In this document: one piece after another, positions 204 to 10,452 of the stretch
How positions within the stretch are numbered: the first letter of the stretch is position 1
Layout of the letters: each line of letters begins with the position of its first letter
The notes under the pieces: model-generated
Database searches by the model: none
What the model was told of the DNA's origin: nothing
What the model saw: only the letters and a program-made list of their open reading frames with translations
Translations under genes and position numbers: made by a program
DNA from: Pricia mediterranea
GTDB lineage: Bacteria > Bacteroidota > Bacteroidia > Flavobacteriales > Flavobacteriaceae
DNA length: 64,000 bases
Assembly (NCBI RefSeq): GCF_032248455.1
Contig: NZ_JAVTTP010000001.1
Coordinates: 2,726,501 to 2,790,500, forward strand
Direction: 5' to 3'

Positions 204-1295
204 TTATCTCTTGTTTCTTGGCTCCACCTTAAGAAACCGCTCCAAGATCCGAATATACAAATCAATTGCATCCTCGACCTCGTGCACATAGATAAATTCG
301 TCGGCGGAATGGGAACGGGTGCTGTCCCCCGGCCCTAATTTCAGGGATTGGCAGCTCAGGGCGGCTTGATCGGAAAGGGTAGGGGAACCGTAAGTTTCAC
401 GGCCCAAGGCGACACCCGCCTCTACCAAAGGATGGTCTTCGGCAATGGCCGAGGAATTCAGCCGCAGGGAACGCGGTTGCAGTTCGCAGGGGGCCTCCAA
501 TCTCAAAATATCTGCGATTTCTAGGTTGGAGTACCGGTCGTTGACGCGAACGTCTATCACCAAATCGACTTGGGCGGGCACAGCGTTGTGTTGCACGCCG
601 CCATTGATCTGGGTAACCGTCAGCTTGACTCCCCCCAAGGTTTCGGAGACTTTGTCAAAGTTGTAATTTTTGAACCAGTCAAGCACCTCGATACTATTGT
701 AGATGGGATTGTCGTCGTTCGGATGCGCCGCATGCGAGGGCGTACCCTTGACCTGTGCGTCGAAAACGACCAAACCCTTTTCCGCGATGGCCAATTGCAT
801 CAGGGTCGGCTCGCCCACGATGGCCACGTCGATTTTTGGCAGTTTGGGCAAAAGTCCGCGTAAACTGTTCTTCCCCGAACTTTCTTCCTCCATTGATGCG
901 ACCATCAACAGGTTGTGGGACAGGTTTTCTTCAAAATAAAAATGGGTGAAAGTGGCTATGAGCGATACCAGGGCTCCCCCGGCATCGTTACTGCCGAGTC
1001 CGAATAATTTTCCGTCTTCTATATGCGGGTGGAAGGGGTTCTTTGTGTAGGCGGAATTCGGGCGGACCGTATCGTGGTGGGAGTTCAGCAACAAAGTGGG
1101 TTTGCTCTCGTCAAAGTGCTTATTGACGGCATAGACGTTGTTGATTTCCCGTTGGAACGGGATGCCGAAAGTCTTGAACCAGGCTTCGATGGCATCGGCG
1201 GTCTTATCTTCCTCGGAAGAAAAAGATTGAATCGAAATCAGTTGTTTCAGCAGCTCCAGTGCCTTTTCCGTCAGTTGCTCCTTATTTGGCTTCAT
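204..1295 (-). CDS. argE: M20 family N-acyl-ornithine/citrulline deacylase (ArgE')
   Basis: This 363-residue M20 metallopeptidase should remove the acyl group from the arginine intermediate. The operon encodes an ArgF'-type transcarbamylase, so the likely substrate is N-acetyl- or N-succinyl-citrulline rather than acetylornithine; that substrate is inferred. Metal-binding motifs are visible: SHHDT around residues 72-76, the bridging aspartate in GSNDAGG near 104, and the EEE cluster near 136-138 that holds the general base. The central dimerisation domain follows (about 170-280). The ATG overlaps the argB stop by four bases (ATGA), which implies translational coupling. It is a cytoplasmic enzyme of usual family length. 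Confidence 0.9.
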   Translation of the reverse strand: MKPNKEQLTEKALELLKQLISIQSFSSEEDKTADAIEAWFKTFGIPFQREINNVYAVNKHFDESKPTLLLNSHHDTVRPNSAYTKNPFHPHIEDGKLFGLGSNDAGGALVSLIATFTHFYFEENLSHNLLMVASMEEESSGKNSLRGLLPKLPKIDVAIVGEPTLMQLAIAEKGLVVFDAQVKGTPSHAAHPNDDNPIYNSIEVLDWFKNYNFDKVSETLGGVKLTVTQINGGVQHNAVPAQVDLVIDVRVNDRYSNLEIADILRLEAPCELQPRSLRLNSSAIAEDHPLVEAGVALGRETYGSPTLSDQAALSCQSLKLGPGDSTRSHSADEFIYVHEVEDAIDLYIRILERFLKVEPRNKR

Positions 1296-2071
1296 AGGGT
1301 TAGGGTAGTATAGGGGTTTTCATTTTGGGCCAGCATTATTGTATTTCCGATACATACTTTGGCTACTCCGTTCTTCAGGGCATGAAAGCAGTTGGTCATT
1401 TTCGGAAGCATACCATCGGCGATTGTTCCCTGGTTGAGTAATTCTTGATAGATTTCGGGGTCGATGTGTTCGATTACGGAACGCTCGTCCCAAATATTTC
1501 GGAGAACCCCGTTTTTTTCAAAACAGTAGTACAGGGTGGTTTCGTACATTCCGCTTAGCCCGATGGCCAGCTCGGAGGCGATAGTGTCCGCATTGGTGTT
1601 GAGCAGCTGTCCTTTGCCGTCATGGGTCATCGCGCAGAACACGGGCGTAAGGCCTGAGCCCAAAAGTCGGGAGAGCAAATTGGCATCGACTCCGTCCACA
1701 TCGCCTGCAAACCCGTAATCGATGTCTTTCACCGGGCGTTTATGGGCTTGGATGGCATTGCCGTCCGCTCCGCTCATCCCGATGGCGTTGCACCCGTTCG
1801 CCTGTAGTTTAGCGACGATGTTTTTATTGGCCAGGCCCGCATAGACCATCGTAATGACTTCTAGGCCCGCCTTATCGGTGACGCGTCGCCCGCCTATCAT
1901 TTGGGATGCGACCCCCATTCTTTTAAAGATTTGCGTGGCCAGGTTTCCGCCCCCGTGCACCAAAATTTTAAGTCCGTCCAATTCCGAAAATAGGCTTAGG
2001 AACTTTGCGAGTTCGGACTCGTTCCCGATGACGTTTCCGCCGATTTTTATTATGGAGAGACTTGATTTCAT
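1292..2071 (-). CDS. argB: Acetylglutamate (N-acylglutamate) kinase
   Basis: This is an amino-acid kinase family protein of 259 residues that phosphorylates N-acylglutamate, the second step of arginine synthesis. The nucleotide-binding start IKIGGNVIG, the LVHGGG loop and the NTNADTIASELA segment are typical. I chose the ATG at 2071; the longer frame would need a TTG at 2083. The stop overlaps the argE' start. A 92-base gap separates it from the upstream SDR gene, wider than the 34-40 bases flanking proB. It acts in the cytoplasm between the acyltransferase and ArgC. Confidence 0.92.
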   Translation of the reverse strand: MKSSLSIIKIGGNVIGNESELAKFLSLFSELDGLKILVHGGGNLATQIFKRMGVASQMIGGRRVTDKAGLEVITMVYAGLANKNIVAKLQANGCNAIGMSGADGNAIQAHKRPVKDIDYGFAGDVDGVDANLLSRLLGSGLTPVFCAMTHDGKGQLLNTNADTIASELAIGLSGMYETTLYYCFEKNGVLRNIWDERSVIEHIDPEIYQELLNQGTIADGMLPKMTNCFHALKNGVAKVCIGNTIMLAQNENPYTTLTL

Positions 2072-2163
2072 AGCTCTTTTCAACTATTTATTGTACTGTT
2101 GGATTTCTTTTTGGGCTCCTATCTTTTATTAATGTGGATGGTTCGATCGGCGACAGATTTCGG

Positions 2164-2916
2164 TCATGCGTTCAAAATCCCCCCATCGATGGTCATGGCC
2201 GTGCCGGTAATCCAAGAGGATTCGTCCGAGGTAAGAAACAAAGCCAGTTTGGCAATATCCTCGGGAGTTCCCAATCGGTTCAGCAGGGTGTCGTTCTTGG
2301 CGTCTTCGACCGCGGTATCGGGATTTTCGAAAGCCTTGGCCGAATTCCATAAAAAGGGAGTGTCCACCGGCCCGGGACAGATGGCGTTGATTCGGATGTC
2401 CGGGGCATATTCGACCGCCATCTGTTTCATCAGAGCCACGGCCGCTGCCTTTGAGGCACAATAGGCCGGATGGTTCGGAAAGCTTTTGAATGCCGCAATG
2501 GAGCTGTTGACGACTATGGCTCCCCCTTTATTTTTTTGGATTTGCGGGATGGCGTGTTTGCACAGATAGTAAATGGCGCTCAAATTGACGTCCAAGGTCT
2601 TGTGCCATAGGGTTTCGGGAAGGTCGACCACGTTCCCCAAACCTAGTATGCCCGCATTCAGGGACATCTTATCCAGTCGGCCGAAGTTTTCTAGGGCCGT
2701 TTGTACCAACTTTTCGTTATAAGCAGGTTCGGTAATGTCCCCCGCTACGAATACGGAATTCTTCAATTGCTTTTCCAGGGCTTCTCCCCTTTCGGCATCC
2801 CGACCTGACAGGATTAATTTGGCTCCCTCTTTCGAAAAGGATTCGGCAATCGCCTTTCCCATCCCGCTGGTCGCGCCGGTAATGATACAGACCTTGTCTA
2901 TTAATTTTCGATCCAT
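2164..2916 (-). CDS. SDR family NAD(P)-dependent oxidoreductase
   Basis: This 250-residue classical short-chain dehydrogenase/reductase has the Rossmann motif TGATSGMG near the N-terminus, NAG in LNAGILG, the active-site YCASK (Tyr-x3-Lys) and the PGPV turn. The C-terminal SWITGTAMTIDGG is typical of FabG-like members. I start at the ATG at 2916 because the longer frame (to 3081) runs into the end of argF' and lacks family sequence. Gaps of 148 and 92 bases isolate it inside the arginine operon, so it may be an insertion rather than a pathway enzyme. The substrate cannot be deduced. Confidence 0.85.
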   Translation of the reverse strand: MDRKLIDKVCIITGATSGMGKAIAESFSKEGAKLILSGRDAERGEALEKQLKNSVFVAGDITEPAYNEKLVQTALENFGRLDKMSLNAGILGLGNVVDLPETLWHKTLDVNLSAIYYLCKHAIPQIQKNKGGAIVVNSSIAAFKSFPNHPAYCASKAAAVALMKQMAVEYAPDIRINAICPGPVDTPFLWNSAKAFENPDTAVEDAKNDTLLNRLGTPEDIAKLALFLTSDESSWITGTAMTIDGGILNA

Positions 2917-3064
2917 CTTAAATCTTAATTTCTTCGGATGTAATTTACATCGATTTGTCGTGAGCGTTTTTATTTCAACTGGAAAGCTATCTCCTCTGGC
3001 AAAGTTTCGGGGGTCGGCAATCAATGTTGTCACACAGGTACAGGTTTGGGACTTGCACAACGTA

Positions 3065-4087
3065 TCACCGCATGTTTTCAAGTAGCTTTTTCAGAACAAC
3101 CTGCGCGGCATAGGTCCGGTTGTTGGCCTGTTCGATGACCAATGATTGGCCGCTGTCGAGCACGGCATCTTCGACGACTACGTTCCGTCGGACCGGAAGA
3201 CAGTGCATGAACTTGGCTGCGCCGAGCTTTTCCTGGGTCATCATCCAATCTGAATTTTGATGAAGTACTTTTCCGTAGTCGGAATAGCTGCTCCAGTTCT
3301 TTGCGTACACAAAATCGGCATTCTCGCAAGCTTTTTTCTGATTGTATTCTATCGGAACGTCGCCGGTAATCTCAGGATTCAGTTCATATCCCTTGGGATG
3401 TGTGATGACGAATTCGGCGTCTTGTCGTCGCATCATCTCTACGAATGAATTCGCCACCGCGTGGGGCAAGGCCTTGGGGTGCGGGGCCCACGAAAGTACA
3501 ATTTTAGGTTTTCTACGGGCGCCGGATTGCTGTCCTTGTTCGGATTTTCCCGGTTTGTCATCCGTTTTGTTTTCTTGAGAATCCGTCTCGCGGTTCGGAC
3601 CTTGGTGCTCGGCCAGCGTAATGGCATCGGCCAGGGCCTGTAGCGGATGCCCGATCGAACTTTCCATGTTCACGACAGAAACGGAGGCATATGAGATGAA
3701 CCCGTTCAATACCTCTTCGGCTTCATCTTTCGCTTTGTCCTTCAAGCCCGCGAAGGCCCGGATGGCGACGATATCGCAATACTGCGAAACGACCTGGGCC
3801 GCTTCCTTGATATGTTCGGAGGTGCCTTGATCCATGACGGTTCCATCCCCGTATTCCAAGGCCCAACCCTCGTTGCCGAAATTCATGACCATGACCTCCA
3901 TCCCCAGGTTCATCGCCGCTTTTTGCGTGCTCAATCGGGTGCGGAGGCTGTTGTTGAAGAATAGCAGGCAAAGGGTTTTTCCCACACCCAGTTGCTTTTG
4001 GGAAGTGGGACTTCCTTTGAGTTGCCGAGCTTCCGAGACCCAGTCGGGAAGGGAATCGATATCCTGAATCGAAAAGTAATTTTTCAT
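3065..4087 (-). CDS. argF': N-acetyl/N-succinyl-ornithine carbamoyltransferase (ArgF')
   Basis: This transcarbamylase transfers carbamoyl phosphate to an N-acylated ornithine. The carbamoyl-phosphate loop reads SLRTRLST (residues 47-54) as in the Bacteroidetes ArgF' group. SIGHPLQALADA (144-155) and HCLPVRRN near the C-terminus are the other active-site signatures. At 340 residues it seems longer than usual relatives: a hydrophilic, low-complexity segment (about 162-192, rich in E, Q, K, G and S) sits between ADAITLAE and KPKIVLSWAPHP. I cannot decide acetyl versus succinyl substrate from sequence. It lies 34 bases after proB in the same operon. Confidence 0.9.
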   Translation of the reverse strand: MKNYFSIQDIDSLPDWVSEARQLKGSPTSQKQLGVGKTLCLLFFNNSLRTRLSTQKAAMNLGMEVMVMNFGNEGWALEYGDGTVMDQGTSEHIKEAAQVVSQYCDIVAIRAFAGLKDKAKDEAEEVLNGFISYASVSVVNMESSIGHPLQALADAITLAEHQGPNRETDSQENKTDDKPGKSEQGQQSGARRKPKIVLSWAPHPKALPHAVANSFVEMMRRQDAEFVITHPKGYELNPEITGDVPIEYNQKKACENADFVYAKNWSSYSDYGKVLHQNSDWMMTQEKLGAAKFMHCLPVRRNVVVEDAVLDSGQSLVIEQANNRTYAAQVVLKKLLENMR

Positions 4088-4121
4088 GGGGATGCTTTCT
4101 AATTTTAGTCGTTAGTCGTCC

Positions 4122-4949
4122 TTAGTTTTTCATTCTTTTATCCTTTTGCCCTTCTTTCGTCTTCCGTACTTTCGAAGCTGACTTCTCCTCAATTCTAGTG
4201 TGCGGACTCAAATTCTCAAGCGCATCAGCCAAAAAACCATCCTTTAATCCGTTGACCACCCAAGTCGGTATTCCTGCTTTCCGGGCGATGGTAGCAGCCT
4301 CGATTTTGGACTGCATCCCACCCGTACCGTGGGACGATTTTTTATCCCCCACTTCCCGGGCCAACGCATTGATATCGGAAATGGAAATAATAGTTTCAGG
4401 AAGCTCATCGTTCATGGAGGCTTTCGTGTAAATGCCATCGGTGTTCGTGGCAATGATCAGTAGATCGGCAAGTAAAAGTGAAGCGGTCAGGGCGGCCAGT
4501 TTATCGTTGTCGCCGAACTGGATCTCGTCCGCCGCTACCGTATCGTTTTCGTTGATAATGGGAATAAAATTGTTGTGTATCAGTACATCTATAGTGCTCT
4601 TGATGTTGGCCTTGGATTTTGCATTCTCAAAATCGGAATACGACAGCAAGCATTGGGCCGACGACAGCCCCAATTCTCGAAAACTCTCCTGAAACAATCG
4701 CATCAGATGGGGTTGTCCGATGGCCGCCAGAGCCTGCTTTACCGTAATTTCTTCCCCGTTATGTTCCAGTTTGACGAATTGTTTGGCCGCGGCAATGGCG
4801 CCTGAACTGACAATAATGAATTCATAATCGTCTTTTAGCAAGGCGACTTGGCGTCCGATATCCTCTATTTTGCCCCGAGAGATCTGATCGGTTTCACGGG
4901 TAAGGGTATTGGAGCCGATTTTTAACAATATACGTTTTCTGGTTCTCAT
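4122..4949 (-). CDS. proB: Glutamate 5-kinase without PUA domain
   Basis: This is an amino-acid kinase family protein of 275 residues that makes glutamyl-5-phosphate, the first step of proline synthesis. Visible motifs are LLKIGSNTLT at the N-terminus, VSSGAIAAA, the NENDTVA loop, FGDNDKL, and KKSSHGTGGMQSK. The C-terminal PUA domain of the enterobacterial enzyme is absent and the protein ends in a short basic tail. I start at the ATG at 4949; an upstream ATG at 4973 is possible. The partner proA, often beside proB, is not found in this window. Confidence 0.92.
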   Translation of the reverse strand: MRTRKRILLKIGSNTLTRETDQISRGKIEDIGRQVALLKDDYEFIIVSSGAIAAAKQFVKLEHNGEEITVKQALAAIGQPHLMRLFQESFRELGLSSAQCLLSYSDFENAKSKANIKSTIDVLIHNNFIPIINENDTVAADEIQFGDNDKLAALTASLLLADLLIIATNTDGIYTKASMNDELPETIISISDINALAREVGDKKSSHGTGGMQSKIEAATIARKAGIPTWVVNGLKDGFLADALENLSPHTRIEEKSASKVRKTKEGQKDKRMKN

Positions 4950-4989
4950 CGATTTCTGGTTACGGCCCTCCACGTGTACTTTTTTCGGA

Positions 4990-6153
4990 TTATTGATTCA
5001 CGTTTTGTAATTCGTTTTTCAAACCTTCGAACAAAACATCCAAATCCCGTTCCGTTACGTTCAGGGCCGGCAGTACCCGGAGCAGGTGCTTATTCTTTGC
5101 GCCCCCGGTAAACAAATGCTGGTTGTCGATGAGTCGCTTTCTCAGTTCGGCCACTTCAAAATCGAACTCCAGCCCGAGCATCAACCCCCGTCCCTTTACT
5201 TTTTTGATTTGCGGGATATCCGCTGCCAGTCCCCGAAAATAACCCTCCATTTGTTTGGCGTTTTCGATCAATCGCTCGTCTACCAAGACCTCAAGAACGG
5301 CCAGGGTGGCGGCGCAGGCCAAATGGTTGCCCCCGAAAGTGGTGCCGAGCAATCCATAGGATGCCTTGATGTCTTTGTGAATCAAGATACCTCCGACGGG
5401 AAAGCCGTTGCCCATGCCTTTTGCGATGCTTATGATATCAGGATCAATGTTGGATTCCGATTCAACCAATGCGTTGTGATGTTGAAACCCAAAGAACTTG
5501 CCGGTGCGTCCGAAACCGGATTGCACTTCGTCGGCAATCAGTACCACCTGGTTTGCATTGCAGAGTTTTTGGAGTATGCGATAAAATTCGGTGGAGGGCT
5601 CGTCGAGTCCACCGACCCCTTGAACGGCTTCAAAAATGACGGCGCACACATCGCCCTTCTCGATTTCCTTTTTTAAAGCATCGCCATCATTGAAGGGCAG
5701 AAAGGTCACTTTCTGCTGCCGGTTGATGGGGGCGTTGATTTTAGGATTGTCCGTAACCGCCACTGCGGCCGACGTACGGCCGTGAAAACTGTTGTCGAAC
5801 GCGATGACGCGGGACTTCCCCGTATGGAACGAGGCCAGTTTTAAGGCGTTCTCGTTGGCTTCGGCCCCTGAATTGCAGAGAAATAGGTTGTAGTCCCCGC
5901 ACCCCGATAGCCGGCCCAACTTTTCCGCCACCTCCGCTTGTAGGGGGTTCTTGACCGAATTGCTGTAAAAGCCGATGTTATCGAGCTGGTCTTTCAGCCG
6001 CTTTACGTATCGCGGATGTGAATGACCGATCGATATCACGGCATGCCCACCATAGAAATCGAGATATTCCTGTCCTTTATCATCAGTGACGACAATGCCC
6101 TCGGCCGATACCGGGGTCACGTCGTATAAAGGGTAAACATCGAATAATTTCAT
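4990..6153 (-). CDS. argD: Acyl-ornithine aminotransferase
   Basis: This PLP-dependent class III aminotransferase (about 387 residues) converts N-acylglutamate semialdehyde to N-acylornithine. Family signatures include GGHAVISIGHSHPR, the NSGAEANENALK phosphate-binding loop, FHGRTSAA, the LIADEVQSGFGRTG aspartate region and the lysine in SIAKGMGNGFPVGG. I start at the ATG at 6153 (MKLFDVYPLYDV), which matches family N-termini; the longer frame adds 13 doubtful residues. It sits 40 bases upstream of proB, where proA is often placed in related genomes. Confidence 0.92.
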   Translation of the reverse strand: MKLFDVYPLYDVTPVSAEGIVVTDDKGQEYLDFYGGHAVISIGHSHPRYVKRLKDQLDNIGFYSNSVKNPLQAEVAEKLGRLSGCGDYNLFLCNSGAEANENALKLASFHTGKSRVIAFDNSFHGRTSAAVAVTDNPKINAPINRQQKVTFLPFNDGDALKKEIEKGDVCAVIFEAVQGVGGLDEPSTEFYRILQKLCNANQVVLIADEVQSGFGRTGKFFGFQHHNALVESESNIDPDIISIAKGMGNGFPVGGILIHKDIKASYGLLGTTFGGNHLACAATLAVLEVLVDERLIENAKQMEGYFRGLAADIPQIKKVKGRGLMLGLEFDFEVAELRKRLIDNQHLFTGGAKNKHLLRVLPALNVTERDLDVLFEGLKNELQNVNQ

Positions 6154-6243
6154 ATTTTTAAACTTTAACCTATCAAATTTAACTTGCTCCAATCAGGCCT
6201 AACCCCTAGACTGTCACCCGCTAATTGCCCCTGCCGACTCTTT

Positions 6244-7044
6244 TCAAAGCTGCCCTTCCTGGATAAGGCTGATTTTCGCGTAAGATGCCGCTATTCCTTG
6301 TATCAATGAAGAGCTCAAGCCCTGATGCTCCATTTCGTTAAGGCCTTGAATGGTGCATCCCTTGGGGGTGGTCACCTTATCGATTTCGGCTTCCGGATGG
6401 CTGCCCGAGGCGATCAACAGGTTGGCTGCCCCGTTGCAGGTGTGCATGGCCAGCTCTTGGGCTTCCTTGGCATCAAATCCCAGTTGAATGGCCCCCTGGG
6501 TGGTGGCCCGGATCAAGCGCATCCAAAAAGCGATGCCGCTGGCGCAGATAACGGTCGCGGCCTGCATTTGGGATTCAGGAATCTCCATGGAATGTCCCAT
6601 TCTATTAAAGATGGCTTTGGCAAGGGCTACCCTTTTTTTTCCGCTTTCGTTACTACAGAGACAGGTCATGCTCTTTCCTACCGAAATCGCGGTGTTGGGC
6701 ATACTGCGGATGATGGGATGACCGTCACCGATAATGGCTTCCATTTTGGCAATGCTGAATCCGGTAATTGTGGAGATGACAAGATGTTTTTCCGTCAGTA
6801 GATCCTTGGTATTTTCTAAAAGGAACTCCAATTGACTCGGCTGCACCGCCAAGATCAAAATGTCGGAGTTTTCGACCGCCCTACGATTGTCGGAAGTGAT
6901 AGTGACATTGCCGTACTTTTCGAAATCCCTGATGTCGTCCAGGTTCCGTTTGGTCAGGTACAGGGTGGTGGCTCCGTCGGTGTTCAAGAGGCCCTTGGCG
7001 ATGGACAGTCCCAGGTTTCCGGCTCCGATGATGGCTATTTTCAT
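6244..7044 (-). CDS. proC: Pyrroline-5-carboxylate reductase
   Basis: This 266-residue NAD(P)H-dependent reductase makes the last step to proline. The N-terminal Rossmann motif MKIAIIGAGNLG fixes the ATG at 7044. RSMPNTAISVGKSMT and the C-terminal TTPKGCTIQGLNEME are strong family signatures. The longer frame to 7185 would cross a palindromic repeat in the intergenic gap and is rejected. Its place among arginine genes links proline and arginine synthesis from glutamate. Confidence 0.93.
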   Translation of the reverse strand: MKIAIIGAGNLGLSIAKGLLNTDGATTLYLTKRNLDDIRDFEKYGNVTITSDNRRAVENSDILILAVQPSQLEFLLENTKDLLTEKHLVISTITGFSIAKMEAIIGDGHPIIRSMPNTAISVGKSMTCLCSNESGKKRVALAKAIFNRMGHSMEIPESQMQAATVICASGIAFWMRLIRATTQGAIQLGFDAKEAQELAMHTCNGAANLLIASGSHPEAEIDKVTTPKGCTIQGLNEMEHQGLSSSLIQGIAASYAKISLIQEGQL

Positions 7045-7078
7045 GATTTCTGATATTAAATTTCCTTCATTCATAATT

Positions 7079-7140
7079 GCGAGCGGAGCGAAGTAATCCG
7101 TTGACATTACTGCTAGTATCAACAGATTGCTTCGTCGCTT
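7079..7140. repeat. Intergenic palindromic element between argC and proC
   Basis: An imperfect inverted repeat: GCGGAGCGAAGTAATC on the left answers GATTGCTTCGTCGC on the right, with GTTGA and TCAAC inside and a central loop around ATTACTGCTAGTA. It would form a long hairpin in the operon transcript. It looks like a dispersed intergenic element and may affect mRNA stability between argC and proC; that role is inference. Confidence 0.7.
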
Positions 7141-7208
7141 TGGCATTTTCCAAGAATCGTCACTTGATTCTGCTCCTTGCAACAACGTCCTGATTTGAAT
7201 ACTTTAGT

Positions 7209-8183
7209 CTAAAACACGCCCGCTTTCAACCGCAATCCATCGTCCTCCGGGAATCCGAACATCAGGTTCATATTTTGCACCGCTTGTCCCGATGCGCCTT
7301 TCAGCAGGTTGTCCGTTGCGGAAGTAATTAAAAGGATGTTTTTGTGCTTATGTAAGTGGATATGACAGTTGTTCGTATTCACTACTTGTTTTAAATGGAG
7401 GGGCGCTTCCGCCACGTGGGTAAAAGCGGCCTCCTTATAAAAATTGCGATAGAGTTGGATGGCATCTTCCTCGTTTCCATTGAATTTGGTGTAGGCGGTC
7501 GCGAGGATGCCCCGGGGAAAATCGCCCCGATGGGGCAGAAAATAGAGTTCCCCGATATGGGGATGCCGGGATTTCAGGACTTCCTCTATCTCCTCCAAAT
7601 GCTGATGGGTAAAGGGCTTGTACCAGCTGGCGTTGTTGTTCCGCCAGCTGAAATGCGTGGTTTCGGACGGACGAACGCCCGCCCCCGTGCTTCCGGTAAT
7701 TGCATTGATGTGGATATCGTGCTGTAGAAGTCCCGCCTGGGCCAAAGGGAGCAACGCCAACTCGATGGTCGTGGCGAAACATCCGGGATTGGCGATATGA
7801 TTCGCTTTTTGAATGTCCGATTTTTTCAGTTCGGGCAGCCCGTACACAAACTCCTTTCCTTCGAAAACGGCGTCTTCTTGCAACCGGAAATCGGTGCTGA
7901 GGTCGATGATCTTGGTGCGGTCCGAAAACTTGTTCTCCTGTAGGAACTTGGAGGAGTTGCCGTGTCCCAAACAAAGAAAAACGACGTCGACTGCCGGATT
8001 TATACCTCCCGTAAACTCCATTTCGGTAGTCCCCAACAAATCGGGATGTGCCGTGGTTACTTTCTTCCCGGCCCGGGTCGTGCTATAGACGAAATCGATT
8101 TTCGCTTGCGGATGTTGCAGCAGGATTCGGATCAATTCCCCACCAGTATAGCCCGAACCGCCTATTATTCCTACGTTGATCAT
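7209..8183 (-). CDS. argC: N-acetyl-gamma-glutamyl-phosphate reductase
   Basis: This 324-residue NADP-dependent reductase converts N-acylglutamyl phosphate to the semialdehyde. The N-terminal IIGGSGYTGGELIRIL binds the cofactor. The catalytic cysteine lies in ANPGCFATTIELAL, and the LPHRGDFPRGI region carries the active-site histidine. It is followed by a 164-base gap with a palindrome before proC and preceded by a 143-base gap with dispersed repeats after argG. The ATG start at 8183 is unambiguous. Confidence 0.94.
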   Translation of the reverse strand: MINVGIIGGSGYTGGELIRILLQHPQAKIDFVYSTTRAGKKVTTAHPDLLGTTEMEFTGGINPAVDVVFLCLGHGNSSKFLQENKFSDRTKIIDLSTDFRLQEDAVFEGKEFVYGLPELKKSDIQKANHIANPGCFATTIELALLPLAQAGLLQHDIHINAITGSTGAGVRPSETTHFSWRNNNASWYKPFTHQHLEEIEEVLKSRHPHIGELYFLPHRGDFPRGILATAYTKFNGNEEDAIQLYRNFYKEAAFTHVAEAPLHLKQVVNTNNCHIHLHKHKNILLITSATDNLLKGASGQAVQNMNLMFGFPEDDGLRLKAGVF

Positions 8184-8210
8184 GGTTGTTTATAATTCTA
8201 TTATCGTTTT

Positions 8211-8258
8211 AGGTCTCGACTGCGCCTGTCTCGGGCGAAGTCGAGAGGCTCGACCTGA
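8211..8258. repeat. Dispersed palindromic repeat (CTCGACTGCGC family)
   Basis: TCTCGACTGCGCCTGTCTC is followed by GGGCGAAGTCGAGAGG, forming partly inverted copies of a motif that recurs at 15051-15085 and 61412-61490. It lies in the argG-argC gap. It resembles short intergenic palindromes of the REP type; no function is evident. Confidence 0.55.
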
Positions 8259-8326
8259 CATTGGTTCCACTTTTTGGAACTCTGGGCCGACAAGACGGTG
8301 TATGTTCCCATTTTTCGGTGCCCAGG

Positions 8327-9532
8327 TCAATTCTTCCTTTGGGAATTAGATGACCTGTTTACATGGTTATAAATCTTCCCCGGGTTCGAGAGCAGCTTGA
8401 TAAACCCCTTGGCATCATCGGCCGTCCAGCCCTTGTTCACTTCGCCGTAGCTTCCGAACGCGGCGCTCATCAAATCGTGCTCCGATTCGATTCCGTTGAG
8501 TTCGAAGCGGTAGGGGTGTAGCGACACGAAAACATCCCCCGAAACATTCTTTTGGGTATCGGTCAAAAAGGCCTCGATGTTCCGCATGACCTCGTCCAAA
8601 TAATTCCCCTCGTGCAACAACATCCCATAGAAATTGCCCAGTTGCTCCTTTTGGAACTGCTGCCATTTACCGAGGGTATGTTTTTCCAACAAATGATGCG
8701 CTTTAATGATAATCAACGATGCCGAAGCCTCGAATCCCACCCGGCCCTTGGTGCCGATGATGGTATCCCCCACATGAATGTCGCGCCCGATGGCGTATTT
8801 TGACGCCAGGGCCTCTAATTTGATGATATTTTCTACCGGGGAGTTATTTTCCCCGTCGATGGCGACGAGCTCTCCCTTTTCGAAGGTCAATGTCACCTCT
8901 GAAGGTTCTTTTTGTTGCAATTGGCTGGGGTAGGCGGATTCCGGCAGCGGCTTCTGCGAGGTCAAGGTTTCCTCGCCGCCTACCGATGTCCCCCAGAGTC
9001 CCCTGTTGATGGAGTATTTTGCTTTTTCCCAAGCGTAATCGACCCCGTTCTCTTTGAGATACTCGATTTCGGCCTCCCGCGAAAGGGTATTGTCCCTAAT
9101 CGGGGTAATGATTTCGATCTCGGGCGCGATAATCTGGAATATCATATCGAAACGCACCTGATCGTTGCCCGCGCCCGTGCTGCCATGTGCGATATAGTTC
9201 GCTCCGATTTTTTGGGCATATTTGACGATTTCTATGGCCTGTACGATGCGCTCCGCGCTGACCGATAGGGGATAGGTGTTGTTTTTCAGCACGTTGCCGA
9301 AGATGAGGTATTTGACCACCTTCTCGTAAAAGTACTGTACGGCATCGATAGAGGTGTACGAGCTGGCGCCCAGCTGTAACGCCTTTTCTTCGATATCGGC
9401 GATTTCTTCCTTTGAGAATCCGCCCGTGTTGACGCTGACGGCATGGACCTCAAAGTCTTTTTCCTTGGATAGATATTTGGCGCAGTACGAAGTGTCGAGC
9501 CCGCCGCTGTATGCCAGTACTAGTTTTTTCAT
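8327..9532 (-). CDS. argG: Argininosuccinate synthase
   Basis: This enzyme of 401 residues joins citrulline and aspartate with ATP to form argininosuccinate. The ATP PP-loop YSGGLDTSYC sits at residues 8-17. AHGSTGAGNDQVRFD binds citrulline and aspartate, and YSINRGLWGTSVGGE is typical of the Bacteroidetes form. The ATG at 9532 is clear. It follows the GNAT gene by 72 bases near the head of the operon. Confidence 0.95.
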   Translation of the reverse strand: MKKLVLAYSGGLDTSYCAKYLSKEKDFEVHAVSVNTGGFSKEEIADIEEKALQLGASSYTSIDAVQYFYEKVVKYLIFGNVLKNNTYPLSVSAERIVQAIEIVKYAQKIGANYIAHGSTGAGNDQVRFDMIFQIIAPEIEIITPIRDNTLSREAEIEYLKENGVDYAWEKAKYSINRGLWGTSVGGEETLTSQKPLPESAYPSQLQQKEPSEVTLTFEKGELVAIDGENNSPVENIIKLEALASKYAIGRDIHVGDTIIGTKGRVGFEASASLIIIKAHHLLEKHTLGKWQQFQKEQLGNFYGMLLHEGNYLDEVMRNIEAFLTDTQKNVSGDVFVSLHPYRFELNGIESEHDLMSAAFGSYGEVNKGWTADDAKGFIKLLSNPGKIYNHVNRSSNSQRKN

Positions 9533-9604: not shown

Positions 9605-10234
9605 CTATTCTATTTTCTTCTTCTTCCTTCGCAAAAACAAACTCTCCTTAATGCTCTTCAAGCGTTTAAAGCCTTTGCTGTCCGGTTTTTTCTTGACTTT
9701 CGATGTTGCCTTGGCCTTGGGGTCGTGCAGCATGCCCGTACACAGGCACATTTTATACTCGGTTCGAGTCAGTACGTCGAAGTTCTTGCAGGTTTGGCAG
9801 CCCTTCCAGAATTCAGGATCGTCGGTCAGTTCCGAGAAGGTGACCGGTTTATAGCCGAGTTCATAGTTCATCTTCATGACCGCCAGCCCCGTAGTGATCC
9901 CAAAAATTTTGGCATCGGGGAATTTTTCCCGTGAAAGTTCGAATATCCTTTTTTTGATTTTTTTGGCCAGGCCTTGTTTTCGGAAATCAGGGTGTACGAT
10001 CAAACCGGAATTAGCTACGAATTTTTCGTGTTCCCATACCTCGATATAGCAAAAACCGGCGAAGGCATCCCCCTCGAGGGCAATGACCGCGTTGCCGTTG
10101 CTCAGCCTTTTTCGAATGTATTCGGGGGTACGTTGTGCGATGCCCGTGCCGCGGACCTTGGCCGATTCGGCGATGGTGTCGCAGATGGTTTTGGCGTACT
10201 TAAAATGGGATTCGTTAGCAATTACGATGTCCAT
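9605..10234 (-). CDS. GNAT acyltransferase, probable N-acylglutamate synthase
   Basis: This 209-residue protein has one GNAT domain: the acyl-CoA loop is RKQGLAKK (85-92) after LIVHPDF. A C-terminal C-x2-C ... C-x-C set (Cys146, Cys149, Cys163, Cys165) may bind a metal, followed by a lysine-rich tail. It is the first structural gene of the arginine operon, and no argJ or classical argA is seen here, so it probably acylates glutamate; this is inferred from context. I start at the ATG at 10234 (MDIVIANESHF); the frame upstream to 10306 is untranslated leader. Confidence 0.85.
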   Translation of the reverse strand: MDIVIANESHFKYAKTICDTIAESAKVRGTGIAQRTPEYIRKRLSNGNAVIALEGDAFAGFCYIEVWEHEKFVANSGLIVHPDFRKQGLAKKIKKRIFELSREKFPDAKIFGITTGLAVMKMNYELGYKPVTFSELTDDPEFWKGCQTCKNFDVLTRTEYKMCLCTGMLHDPKAKATSKVKKKPDSKGFKRLKSIKESLFLRRKKKKIE

Positions 10235-10324
10235 TGCTATGGATGTTTGAAAGGAGATGAAGAAAAGTTTTTGGAGCTGTGCGGAAATGGACTCACCTAT
10301 TTCCATGAAAAGTTATACGTACCC

Positions 10325-10405
10325 TTACGGGCGACGGCGGCGAGCGAACGGACGAACTGGAGCGGGGATGCTCTTGACCATATCTATGTGATTTTGTCCT
10401 TGCAT
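10325..10405 (-). CDS. Arginine-rich leader peptide of the arg operon
   Basis: A 26-codon ORF on the minus strand begins MQGQNHIDMV and ends ARRRRP before TAA. Arginine codons occupy position 18 and four consecutive positions 22-25 (CGC CGC CGT CGC). Its ATG lies seven bases after the -7 box of the operon promoter, so the transcript would be almost leaderless. A run of codons for the pathway's end product directly upstream of its operon is the hallmark of ribosome-mediated attenuation. No clear hairpin plus T-run terminator follows before the GNAT start at 10234, so the mechanism (Rho, translation or other) is open. Confidence 0.75.
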   Translation of the reverse strand: MQGQNHIDMVKSIPAPVRPFARRRRP

Positions 10406-10412
10406 TGAATTC

Positions 10413-10442
10413 CAAATGTACAAGATTACAACGAAACTACAA
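10413..10442 (-). promoter_or_regulatory. Arginine operon promoter (Bacteroidetes type)
   Basis: On the minus strand TTG (10442-10440), a 19-base spacer and TACATTTG (10420-10413) match the Bacteroidetes consensus TTTG-N19-TAnnTTTG. It directly precedes the Arg-rich leader ORF. Confidence 0.8.
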
Positions 10443-10452
10443 CCATCGAAGC

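What the first reader, a model, noticed from the sequence alone, without database searches (positions are those of the whole stretch)
10325..10442. Arg-Arg-Arg-Arg leader peptide at a nearly leaderless promoter controls the arg operon
A perfect TTG-N19-TACATTTG promoter is followed within seven bases by a 26-codon ORF with four consecutive Arg codons (CGC CGC CGT CGC) just before Pro and stop, 90 bases upstream of the first arginine gene. This is the layout of a ribosome-mediated attenuator for the pathway's end product. No canonical terminator hairpin with a T-run follows, so the switch may work by Rho or by translation. Arginine attenuation of this kind is uncommon compared with ArgR repression.
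Basis: partly seen in the sequence, partly recalled or inferred. Interest (0 to 1): 0.85.

Follow-up and report, generated by a model that had tools for sequence, protein, structure and literature searches.

The report
Arginine-codon leader of the arg operon
A tiny arginine-rich reading frame with conserved RNA hairpins sits in front of the arginine-making genes of this marine bacterium and its relatives, and probably lets the cell sense arginine shortage through stalled ribosomes, although the usual terminator that would read the signal out is missing.

Summary
On the minus strand a 26-codon ORF (10405-10325, MQGQNHIDMVKSIPAPVRPFARRRRP*) starts 7 nt after a TACATTTG box and ends 90 nt before a ten-gene cluster (GNAT-argG-argC-proC-argD-proB-argF'-SDR-argB-argE). 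A covariance model of its 3' half matches 98 of 100 further Flavobacteriaceae GNAT upstream regions (82 of these trained it, 16 of the other 18 match) and 80 of 80 close named relatives. Arg codons are concentrated in the one open frame and are 86% CGC/CGT; the rest of the peptide shows little amino-acid selection, which favours codon sensing over an arrest peptide. Three hairpins accompany it: P0 inside the ORF, P1 spanning the stop codon, and P2, whose stem covaries and whose loop (GG-UGNGU-CC) is nearly invariant. No Rfam family matches. ArgR was not found (0 of 60 genomes). Trp and probably his leaders in the same genome are followed by terminators; the arg leader is not, and no convincing alternative pairing was found. 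It resembles Salmonella speF orf34 more than textbook attenuation. The readout (Rho, RNA decay or a P2-binding factor) is unresolved, and no arginine response has been measured. New variant of a known kind.

The parts
10413..10442 (-). Bacteroidetes-type promoter, TTG 10442-10440, N19, TACATTTG 10420-10413
   Evidence: Sequence. TAnnTTTG as the sigma-A -7 box: PMC9723704 passage.
10325..10405 (-). Leader ORF, 26 codons plus TAA, MQGQNHIDMVKSIPAPVRPFARRRRP*
   Evidence: Frame test: 375 Arg codons and no stop in this frame against 80 and 45 Arg codons, 22 and 61 stops in the others, 118 loci. No Pfam match.
10331..10342 (-). Four Arg codons CGC CGC CGT CGC, the presumed sensing codons
   Evidence: 482 of 559 Arg codons in 123 leaders are CGC or CGT, against 72 of 184 in 11 window genes.
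10360..10373 (-). P0 hairpin GAGC-AUCCCC-GCUC inside the ORF
   Evidence: Weak here taken alone (shuffle p 0.6); over 118 loci 83 best stems end 23-33 nt before the last Arg codon, 24.5 expected (range chosen).
10320..10333 (-). P1 hairpin CGCCC-GUAA-GGGUA; the stop codon lies in its loop; its outermost pair is open here
   Evidence: Model R2 match 10344-10281, 69.8 bits; P1 is nearly invariant, one pair with a two-sided change in A4.
10283..10304 (-). P2 hairpin GGAAAU-A-GG-UGAGU-CC-AUUUCC with nearly invariant apical part
   Evidence: All six fitted stem pairs have two-sided changes; inner pair G-C in 88 and A-U in 4 of 92; G61, T63, G64 and G66 of alignment A4 invariant in 92 of 92.
10235..10282 (-). 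G-poor spacer between P2 and GNAT, possible site of the readout
   Evidence: 122 loci: A 43%, T 35%, C 15%, G 7%; five or more T in the 10 nt after P2 in 13 of 122.
9605..10234 (-). GNAT acetyltransferase gene, first of the cluster
   Evidence: Pfam Acetyltransf_1 28.6 bits; NCBIfam gives no name above cut-off.
204..9532 (-). argG, argC, proC, argD, proB, N-acetyl/succinylornithine-type carbamoyltransferase, SDR, argB, argE
   Evidence: argG, argC and argD follow GNAT in 80 of 80 relatives, proC in 73 of 80.

Best explanation
It is a cis-acting leader that senses charged tRNA-Arg through ribosome speed. A short, nearly leaderless ORF is translated as the transcript emerges. When arginine is short the ribosome stalls on the CGC/CGT codons, covers P1, and the operon is expressed. 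When arginine is plentiful the ribosome passes and leaves at or just after P1, P1 refolds next to P2, and expression of the arg cluster is cut. Shown from sequence: the ORF, its frame, the Arg codons, the hairpins, their place before the arg genes, no ArgR found, no intrinsic terminator. Inferred: the stalling, its direction, and the readout. Likeliest readouts: Rho-dependent termination in the G-poor spacer (about 0.35), RNA decay (0.25), a dedicated P2-binding protein acting otherwise (0.2), other (0.2).
For: Model matches 98 of 100 GNAT upstream loci (R1, trained only on 30 other loci, matched 87 of the 90 it was given at E up to 0.05) and 80 of 80 named ones. Frame-specific Arg codons, CGY preference, Arg 35% and Lys 1% of the last 12 residues before the terminal Pro (leaders chosen for Arg-rich tails). 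Substitutions 1395/1406/1498 at codon positions 1/2/3, so little peptide selection. P2 covariation. arg genes downstream in 80 of 80. ArgR domain 0 of 60 and 0 of 25 genomes, with positive controls. A trp leader with WWW and a terminator in the same genome shows that this organism uses such leaders.
Against: No expression data. No terminator and no clear alternative pairing, so the switch itself is not visible. P2 is not reached by the ribosome that reads the leader (inferred from usual footprints), so its part is unexplained. The fold of the single sequence is unremarkable (z -0.84). Eleven loci of genus g127 keep GNAT without the element, and L139 and L144 do not match.
Confidence: 0.75

Rival explanations
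1. Arginine-sensing arrest peptide: the nascent ...RRRRP* chain stalls the ribosome when free arginine is high (as tryptophan does with TnaC or arginine with the fungal attenuator peptide; both recalled), and the stalled ribosome changes the fate of the RNA.
For: 105 of 123 picked leaders end in RRP*, and Pro before a stop is known from TnaC (recalled).
Against: Little amino-acid selection upstream of the end; Arg positions vary; in some loci the stop moves downstream (RRPLGA*, RRPLRA*); the fixed end is also explained by P1.
Confidence: 0.1
2. The conserved thing is a metabolite- or protein-binding RNA (P1 and P2), and the ORF is only a translated passenger or a timing device.
For: P2 has an almost invariant apical part and lies beyond the ORF.
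Against: The frame is open and Arg-rich upstream of P1, where no such structure demands it; CGY preference.
Confidence: 0.12
3. Chance ORF in front of an arg operon that is controlled by something else.
For: Single-sequence folding is unremarkable (z -0.84), and 11 loci of one genus do without it.
Against: Conservation, frame and covariation.
Confidence: 0.01

Closest known systems
Salmonella speF leader orf34 (PMC6386406; outline, abstract and passages seen)
   Same: Short ORF with consecutive Arg codons that senses arginine; no rho-independent terminator found in that leader; a hairpin next to the stop codon takes part.
   Different: Controls an ornithine decarboxylase, not arginine synthesis; DUF2618 peptide, which Pfam does not find in four leaders tested here; readout by Rho, RNase G and ribosome-site masking is proven there and only guessed here.
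Terminator-type attenuators of trp and his operons
   Same: Leader ORF with codons of the end product before the biosynthetic genes; a trp leader (WWW) and a probable his leader (HH) occur in this very genome.
   Different: Those are followed by a hairpin and U-tract; the arg leader is not, and no antiterminator-like pairing is evident.
Leader-peptide attenuation suggested for Flavobacterium psychrophilum amino-acid operons (PMC9723704; passages)
   Same: Same family and the same general idea.
   Different: The passages name no arginine operon and describe no element; its supplement could not be read.
ArgR repression
   Same: Same pathway and end product.
   Different: A DNA-binding protein; its C-terminal domain was not found here.

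Membership tests
Leader-peptide (ribosome-mediated) regulation, broad kind | Short ORF rich in codons of the end product, before the genes for that product | tested here: met
Leader-peptide (ribosome-mediated) regulation, broad kind | Expression depends on translation of the ORF and on arginine supply | not testable with these tools
   Needs a reporter or ribosome profiling.
Terminator-type attenuator (his/trp type) | Intrinsic terminator between leader and first gene | tested here: not met
   None on this strand; five or more T in the 10 nt after P2 in only 13 of 122 loci. trp and his regions of the same genome have one.
Terminator-type attenuator (his/trp type) | Mutually exclusive hairpins | tested here: inconclusive
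   13 region pairs in 117 loci: z between -2.4 and +2.3 over 20 permutations; the most favourable are Arg codons with GNAT start (-2.4), with the spacer (-2.3) and with P2 (-1.9). P1 and P2 loop do not covary.
speF orf34 type | Consecutive Arg codons and no intrinsic terminator | tested here: met
speF orf34 type | DUF2618 peptide | tested here: not met
   No Pfam match for four leaders, E up to 10.
speF orf34 type | Rho and RNase G readout | not testable with these tools
   Needs bicyclomycin and decay assays.
Arrest peptide (TnaC type) | Peptide sequence conserved beyond the codons | tested here: not met
   Even spread of changes over codon positions; only the structured end is fixed.
ArgR regulon | ArgR (PF02863) in the genome | tested here: not met
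   0 of 60 and 0 of 25 genomes, both with this one; controls ring in 8 of 14, Bacteroides ihuae among them.
Rfam 15 families | Match to a covariance model | tested here: not met
   At gathering scores only a tRNA in the window; at E up to 5 two snoRNA chance matches on the other strand of 10200-10450.

The most novel reading that the evidence does not exclude
A class of leader, widespread in Flavobacteriaceae, in which ribosome stalling on Arg (perhaps also Pro) codons is read out not by a terminator but by a conserved recognition hairpin (P2: bulged A and GG-UGNGU-CC) that recruits an unknown factor to terminate, antiterminate or degrade the transcript of a ten-gene cluster, in bacteria where ArgR was not found.
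Probability: 0.35. Interest if true: 0.8.

Novelty: new variant of a known kind. Interest (0 to 1): 0.64.

Why it matters
It offers an answer to how Flavobacteriaceae without a recognisable ArgR control arginine synthesis, gives a covariance model that finds the element before most of the arg clusters sampled, and singles out a conserved hairpin that should be bound by something unknown. A trp leader with an ordinary terminator lies in the same genome, so two readouts could be compared in one organism.

Tried and rejected
Shine-Dalgarno mimicry by the P2 loop (AGGUG and UCCA against a recalled Bacteroidetes 16S 3' end): dropped, because the inner GG/CC changes to GA/UC in a compensatory way (4 of 92), which would break it. 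The 16S was not fetched.

Kissing of the P2 loop GGUG with CGCC of P1: no covariation; three loci have P1 GCAC with an unchanged loop, three have a changed loop with unchanged P1, and one has GATG with a partly aligned P1.

P2 pairing with the GNAT start (GUCCAUU with AAUGGAC): possible here, but most of the 30 nearest loci have other bases after the ATG, and P2 with the GNAT region is slightly worse than permuted (z 2.3).

Other copies of the loop: RGGTGHGTCCR has five matches in the genome, the arg site among them. The other four do not fold into the same hairpin; two of them were checked for genes and lie within long ORFs, two were not. A match to GGTGAGTCCA at C1:921764 lies within a long ORF of the other strand.

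Model hits outside the family (L172-L175) look like coding sequence (read by eye). These tallies (30 of 395 genomes of the order; 20 of 395 of the phylum, four of them false) scored only 13 candidates per genome, so they are lower bounds.

Link between leader Pro codons and proC: not significant (68 loci with, 4 without; Fisher p 0.15, Mann-Whitney p 0.22; eight of 80 loci dropped for lack of a usable tail). No boxA-like word after P2.

Limits of the sample: the 130 GNAT loci, the window's own among them, come from the better-scoring part of 199 GNAT-positive genomes of 299, so frequencies lean to nearer relatives. The 123 of 130 Arg-rich ORFs were picked by Arg content. A3 and A4 were fitted to the P1/P2 structure; A3 holds some chance matches; A4 used 92 sources, eight of A3's 100 left out. 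The 80 named loci are the closest of 390 relatives and include some of the same genomes as the unnamed set.

Full report
What is there. The minus strand of 10442-10234 carries a Bacteroidetes-type promoter (TTG-N19-TACATTTG), a 26-codon ORF beginning 7 nt after the -7 box, and 90 nt after its stop the start of a GNAT gene. Downstream, on the same strand, lie argG, argC, proC, argD, proB, an N-acetyl- or succinylornithine-type carbamoyltransferase gene, an SDR, argB and argE (named from NCBIfam matches, several below the curated cut-off). That they form one transcript is inferred. The GNAT has only a superfamily assignment. The window is probably from Pricia: handle G080, called same genus, has the contig length and coordinates of Pricia antarctica DSM 23421.

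Conservation. GNAT relatives occur in 199 of 299 genomes of the family. I read 130 upstream regions: 30 loci, one of them the window's own, and 100 stretches, all from the better-scoring hits. In the first 30, 30 of 30 hold CGCCCGTA(A/G)GGGT and a short ORF ending RRP or RPRP at that place. Model R1, made from these 30, was run on 90 of the other 100 and matched 87 at E up to 0.05; L089 was weak (E 2), L139 matched only elsewhere by chance, L144 not at all. Model R2, made from 92 sequences, matches 98 of the 100 at E up to 0.1, all but L139 and L144; 82 of the 100 were in its training, and of the 18 that were not, 16 match. L139 and L144 still have short ORFs with Arg runs.

It is a reading frame. 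In the 12 codons before the last CGC of 118 loci the leader frame holds 375 Arg codons and no stop; the other two hold 80 and 45 Arg codons and 22 and 61 stops. Of 559 Arg codons in 123 picked leaders 482 are CGC or CGT, against 72 of 184 in 11 window genes. In 121 leaders Arg is 35%, Pro 12% and Lys 1% of the last 12 residues before the terminal Pro; the Arg figure is raised by the way the ORFs were picked. Away from the end, changes fall 1395/1406/1498 on codon positions 1/2/3 (192 pairs among 75 leaders), so little amino-acid selection is visible. That fits codon sensing better than an arrest peptide.

It is a structured RNA. On A4 (92 sequences) 96.6% of 1003 cells pair; 97 cells are changed on both sides, against 23.9 in shuffles (0 of 500 reach it) and at most 23 in slid versions; the number of pairs with such a change, 7, is reached by 9 of 500 shuffles. 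The larger A3, with some chance matches, gives 121 against 28.6. Nearly all of this comes from P2, where six of six fitted pairs change on both sides; in P1 one of five does, and its outermost pair is open in 22 of 92. In this genome that pair is open too. Divergent P1 sequences that still pair (CGCAC-GUAA-GUGCG, ACGCCC-AUUA-GGGCGU) were seen by eye. The inner P2 pair, not part of the fitted structure, is G-C in 88 and A-U in 4, never broken. P0, inside the ORF, is weak in single sequences (21 of 119 at p up to 0.05), but 83 of 118 best stems end 23-33 nt before the last Arg codon, 24.5 expected; that range was set. The fold of the single leader is unremarkable (z -0.84), and RNAalifold on the first 30 shows P1 and P2 only.

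What is not there. No Rfam family matches. No terminator-like site lies on this strand, and only 13 of 122 loci have five or more T in the 10 nt after P2. In the same genome trpE is preceded by MIKNTVHTWWWNNFRYAS* and hisG by MINSSAHHRFYTIAQAR* (picked by eye from the ORFs; the his start and promoter are uncertain), each followed by a hairpin and T-rich stretch. Thirteen region pairs of the arg leader, in 117 loci, were compared with permuted pairs: z lay between -2.4 and +2.3, the most favourable being the Arg codons with the GNAT start (-2.4), the spacer (-2.3) and P2 (-1.9), and the leader with the P1-P2 spacer (-2.0); the control, P2 arms, went from -3.58 to -6.37 kcal/mol with sd 0.16. 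I read this as no clear alternative pairing, though a weak one is not excluded. The ArgR C-terminal domain was not found in 60 relatives nor in 25 selected genomes, both sets with this genome, while 8 of 14 controls ring.

Where it is missing. In genus g127 (unnamed; perhaps Flavobacterium, a guess from its weight in the samples) none of 11 GNAT loci from 10 genomes has a match at E up to 0.01 within about 1.5 kb. L193, of another family of the order, has an Arg-run ORF (RRRPVRV*) and two hairpins with a different loop, read by eye.

The genes behind it. argG, argC and argD follow GNAT in 80 of 80 relatives examined, proC in 73 of 80; in 20 of these read over 14 kb, the carbamoyltransferase gene and argB follow in 20 and argE in 19.

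How it probably works. A ribosome reading the CGY codons covers P1 but does not reach P2, and P0 would lie just behind it (inferred from usual footprints). Slow reading keeps P1 open, fast reading lets it form. P2's nearly invariant apical part asks for another partner. The spacer after P2 is G-poor, with C about twice G, which suits Rho loading but also an ordinary unstructured start region. Salmonella speF orf34 is the nearest precedent: Arg codons, no terminator, readout by Rho, RNase G and ribosome-site masking (PMC6386406, abstract and passages). I put codon sensing at about 0.75 and any single readout at no more than 0.35.

Print. Nine searches (open-access full texts, lists capped, for example 20 of 131) listed no paper whose title or shown abstract describes an arginine leader peptide in Bacteroidota. 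PMC9723704 reports clues of leader-peptide attenuation before amino-acid operons of F. psychrophilum (passages); PMC7366714 suspects such ORFs in Bacteroides (passages). In PMC8632094 the terms searched gave only a carA and an hflX motif of other phyla (passages), and PMC2965389 holds none of the terms arginine, Bacteroidetes, Flavobacteri or argG. Supplements were not readable, so the arg element may already be listed there.

Noticed in passing
L280 (G000:C1, upstream of the trpE-like gene at 974027-974464 plus): A trp leader ORF, MIKNTVHTWWWNNFRYAS*, 5 nt after TATATTTG, followed by a hairpin with T-rich tail: a terminator-type attenuator in the same genome.
   Followed up: partly
L279 (G000:C2, upstream of hisG at 156600-157064 minus): A probable his leader ORF, MINSSAHHRFYTIAQAR*, followed by a strong terminator hairpin with seven T. 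Its promoter and start are uncertain.
   Followed up: partly
window 6244-7050 and 4122-4973: proC and proB sit inside the arg cluster, and Pro is 12% of the last 12 leader residues besides the usual terminal Pro. Joint sensing of Arg and Pro is possible; the test was not significant.
   Followed up: partly
window 10306-10235: An in-frame ATG at 10306, at the foot of P2, would lengthen the GNAT gene by 24 codons; 10234 fits the relatives better, and annotation from 10306 would hide the element inside a gene.
   Followed up: no
L189, L190, L192, L196, upstream of GNAT: Loci without the leader show AT-rich palindromes such as AGATAAAATATCT near the gene start (by eye), perhaps operators of another regulator; no ArgR domain was found in their genomes.
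   Followed up: no
L139, L144: Arg-run leaders ending RRRRCRE* and RRRIRE* with different downstream hairpins; not matched by the model.
   Followed up: no
window 10237-10215 and the loci: GCAAUG at the GNAT start and AUUGC five codons on could pair in many of the 30 nearest loci (by eye).
   Followed up: no
window 10282-10257 and 120 loci: After P2 the sequence runs pyrimidine-rich (about 6 nt), A-rich (about 8 nt), then T-rich, with little G.
   Followed up: no
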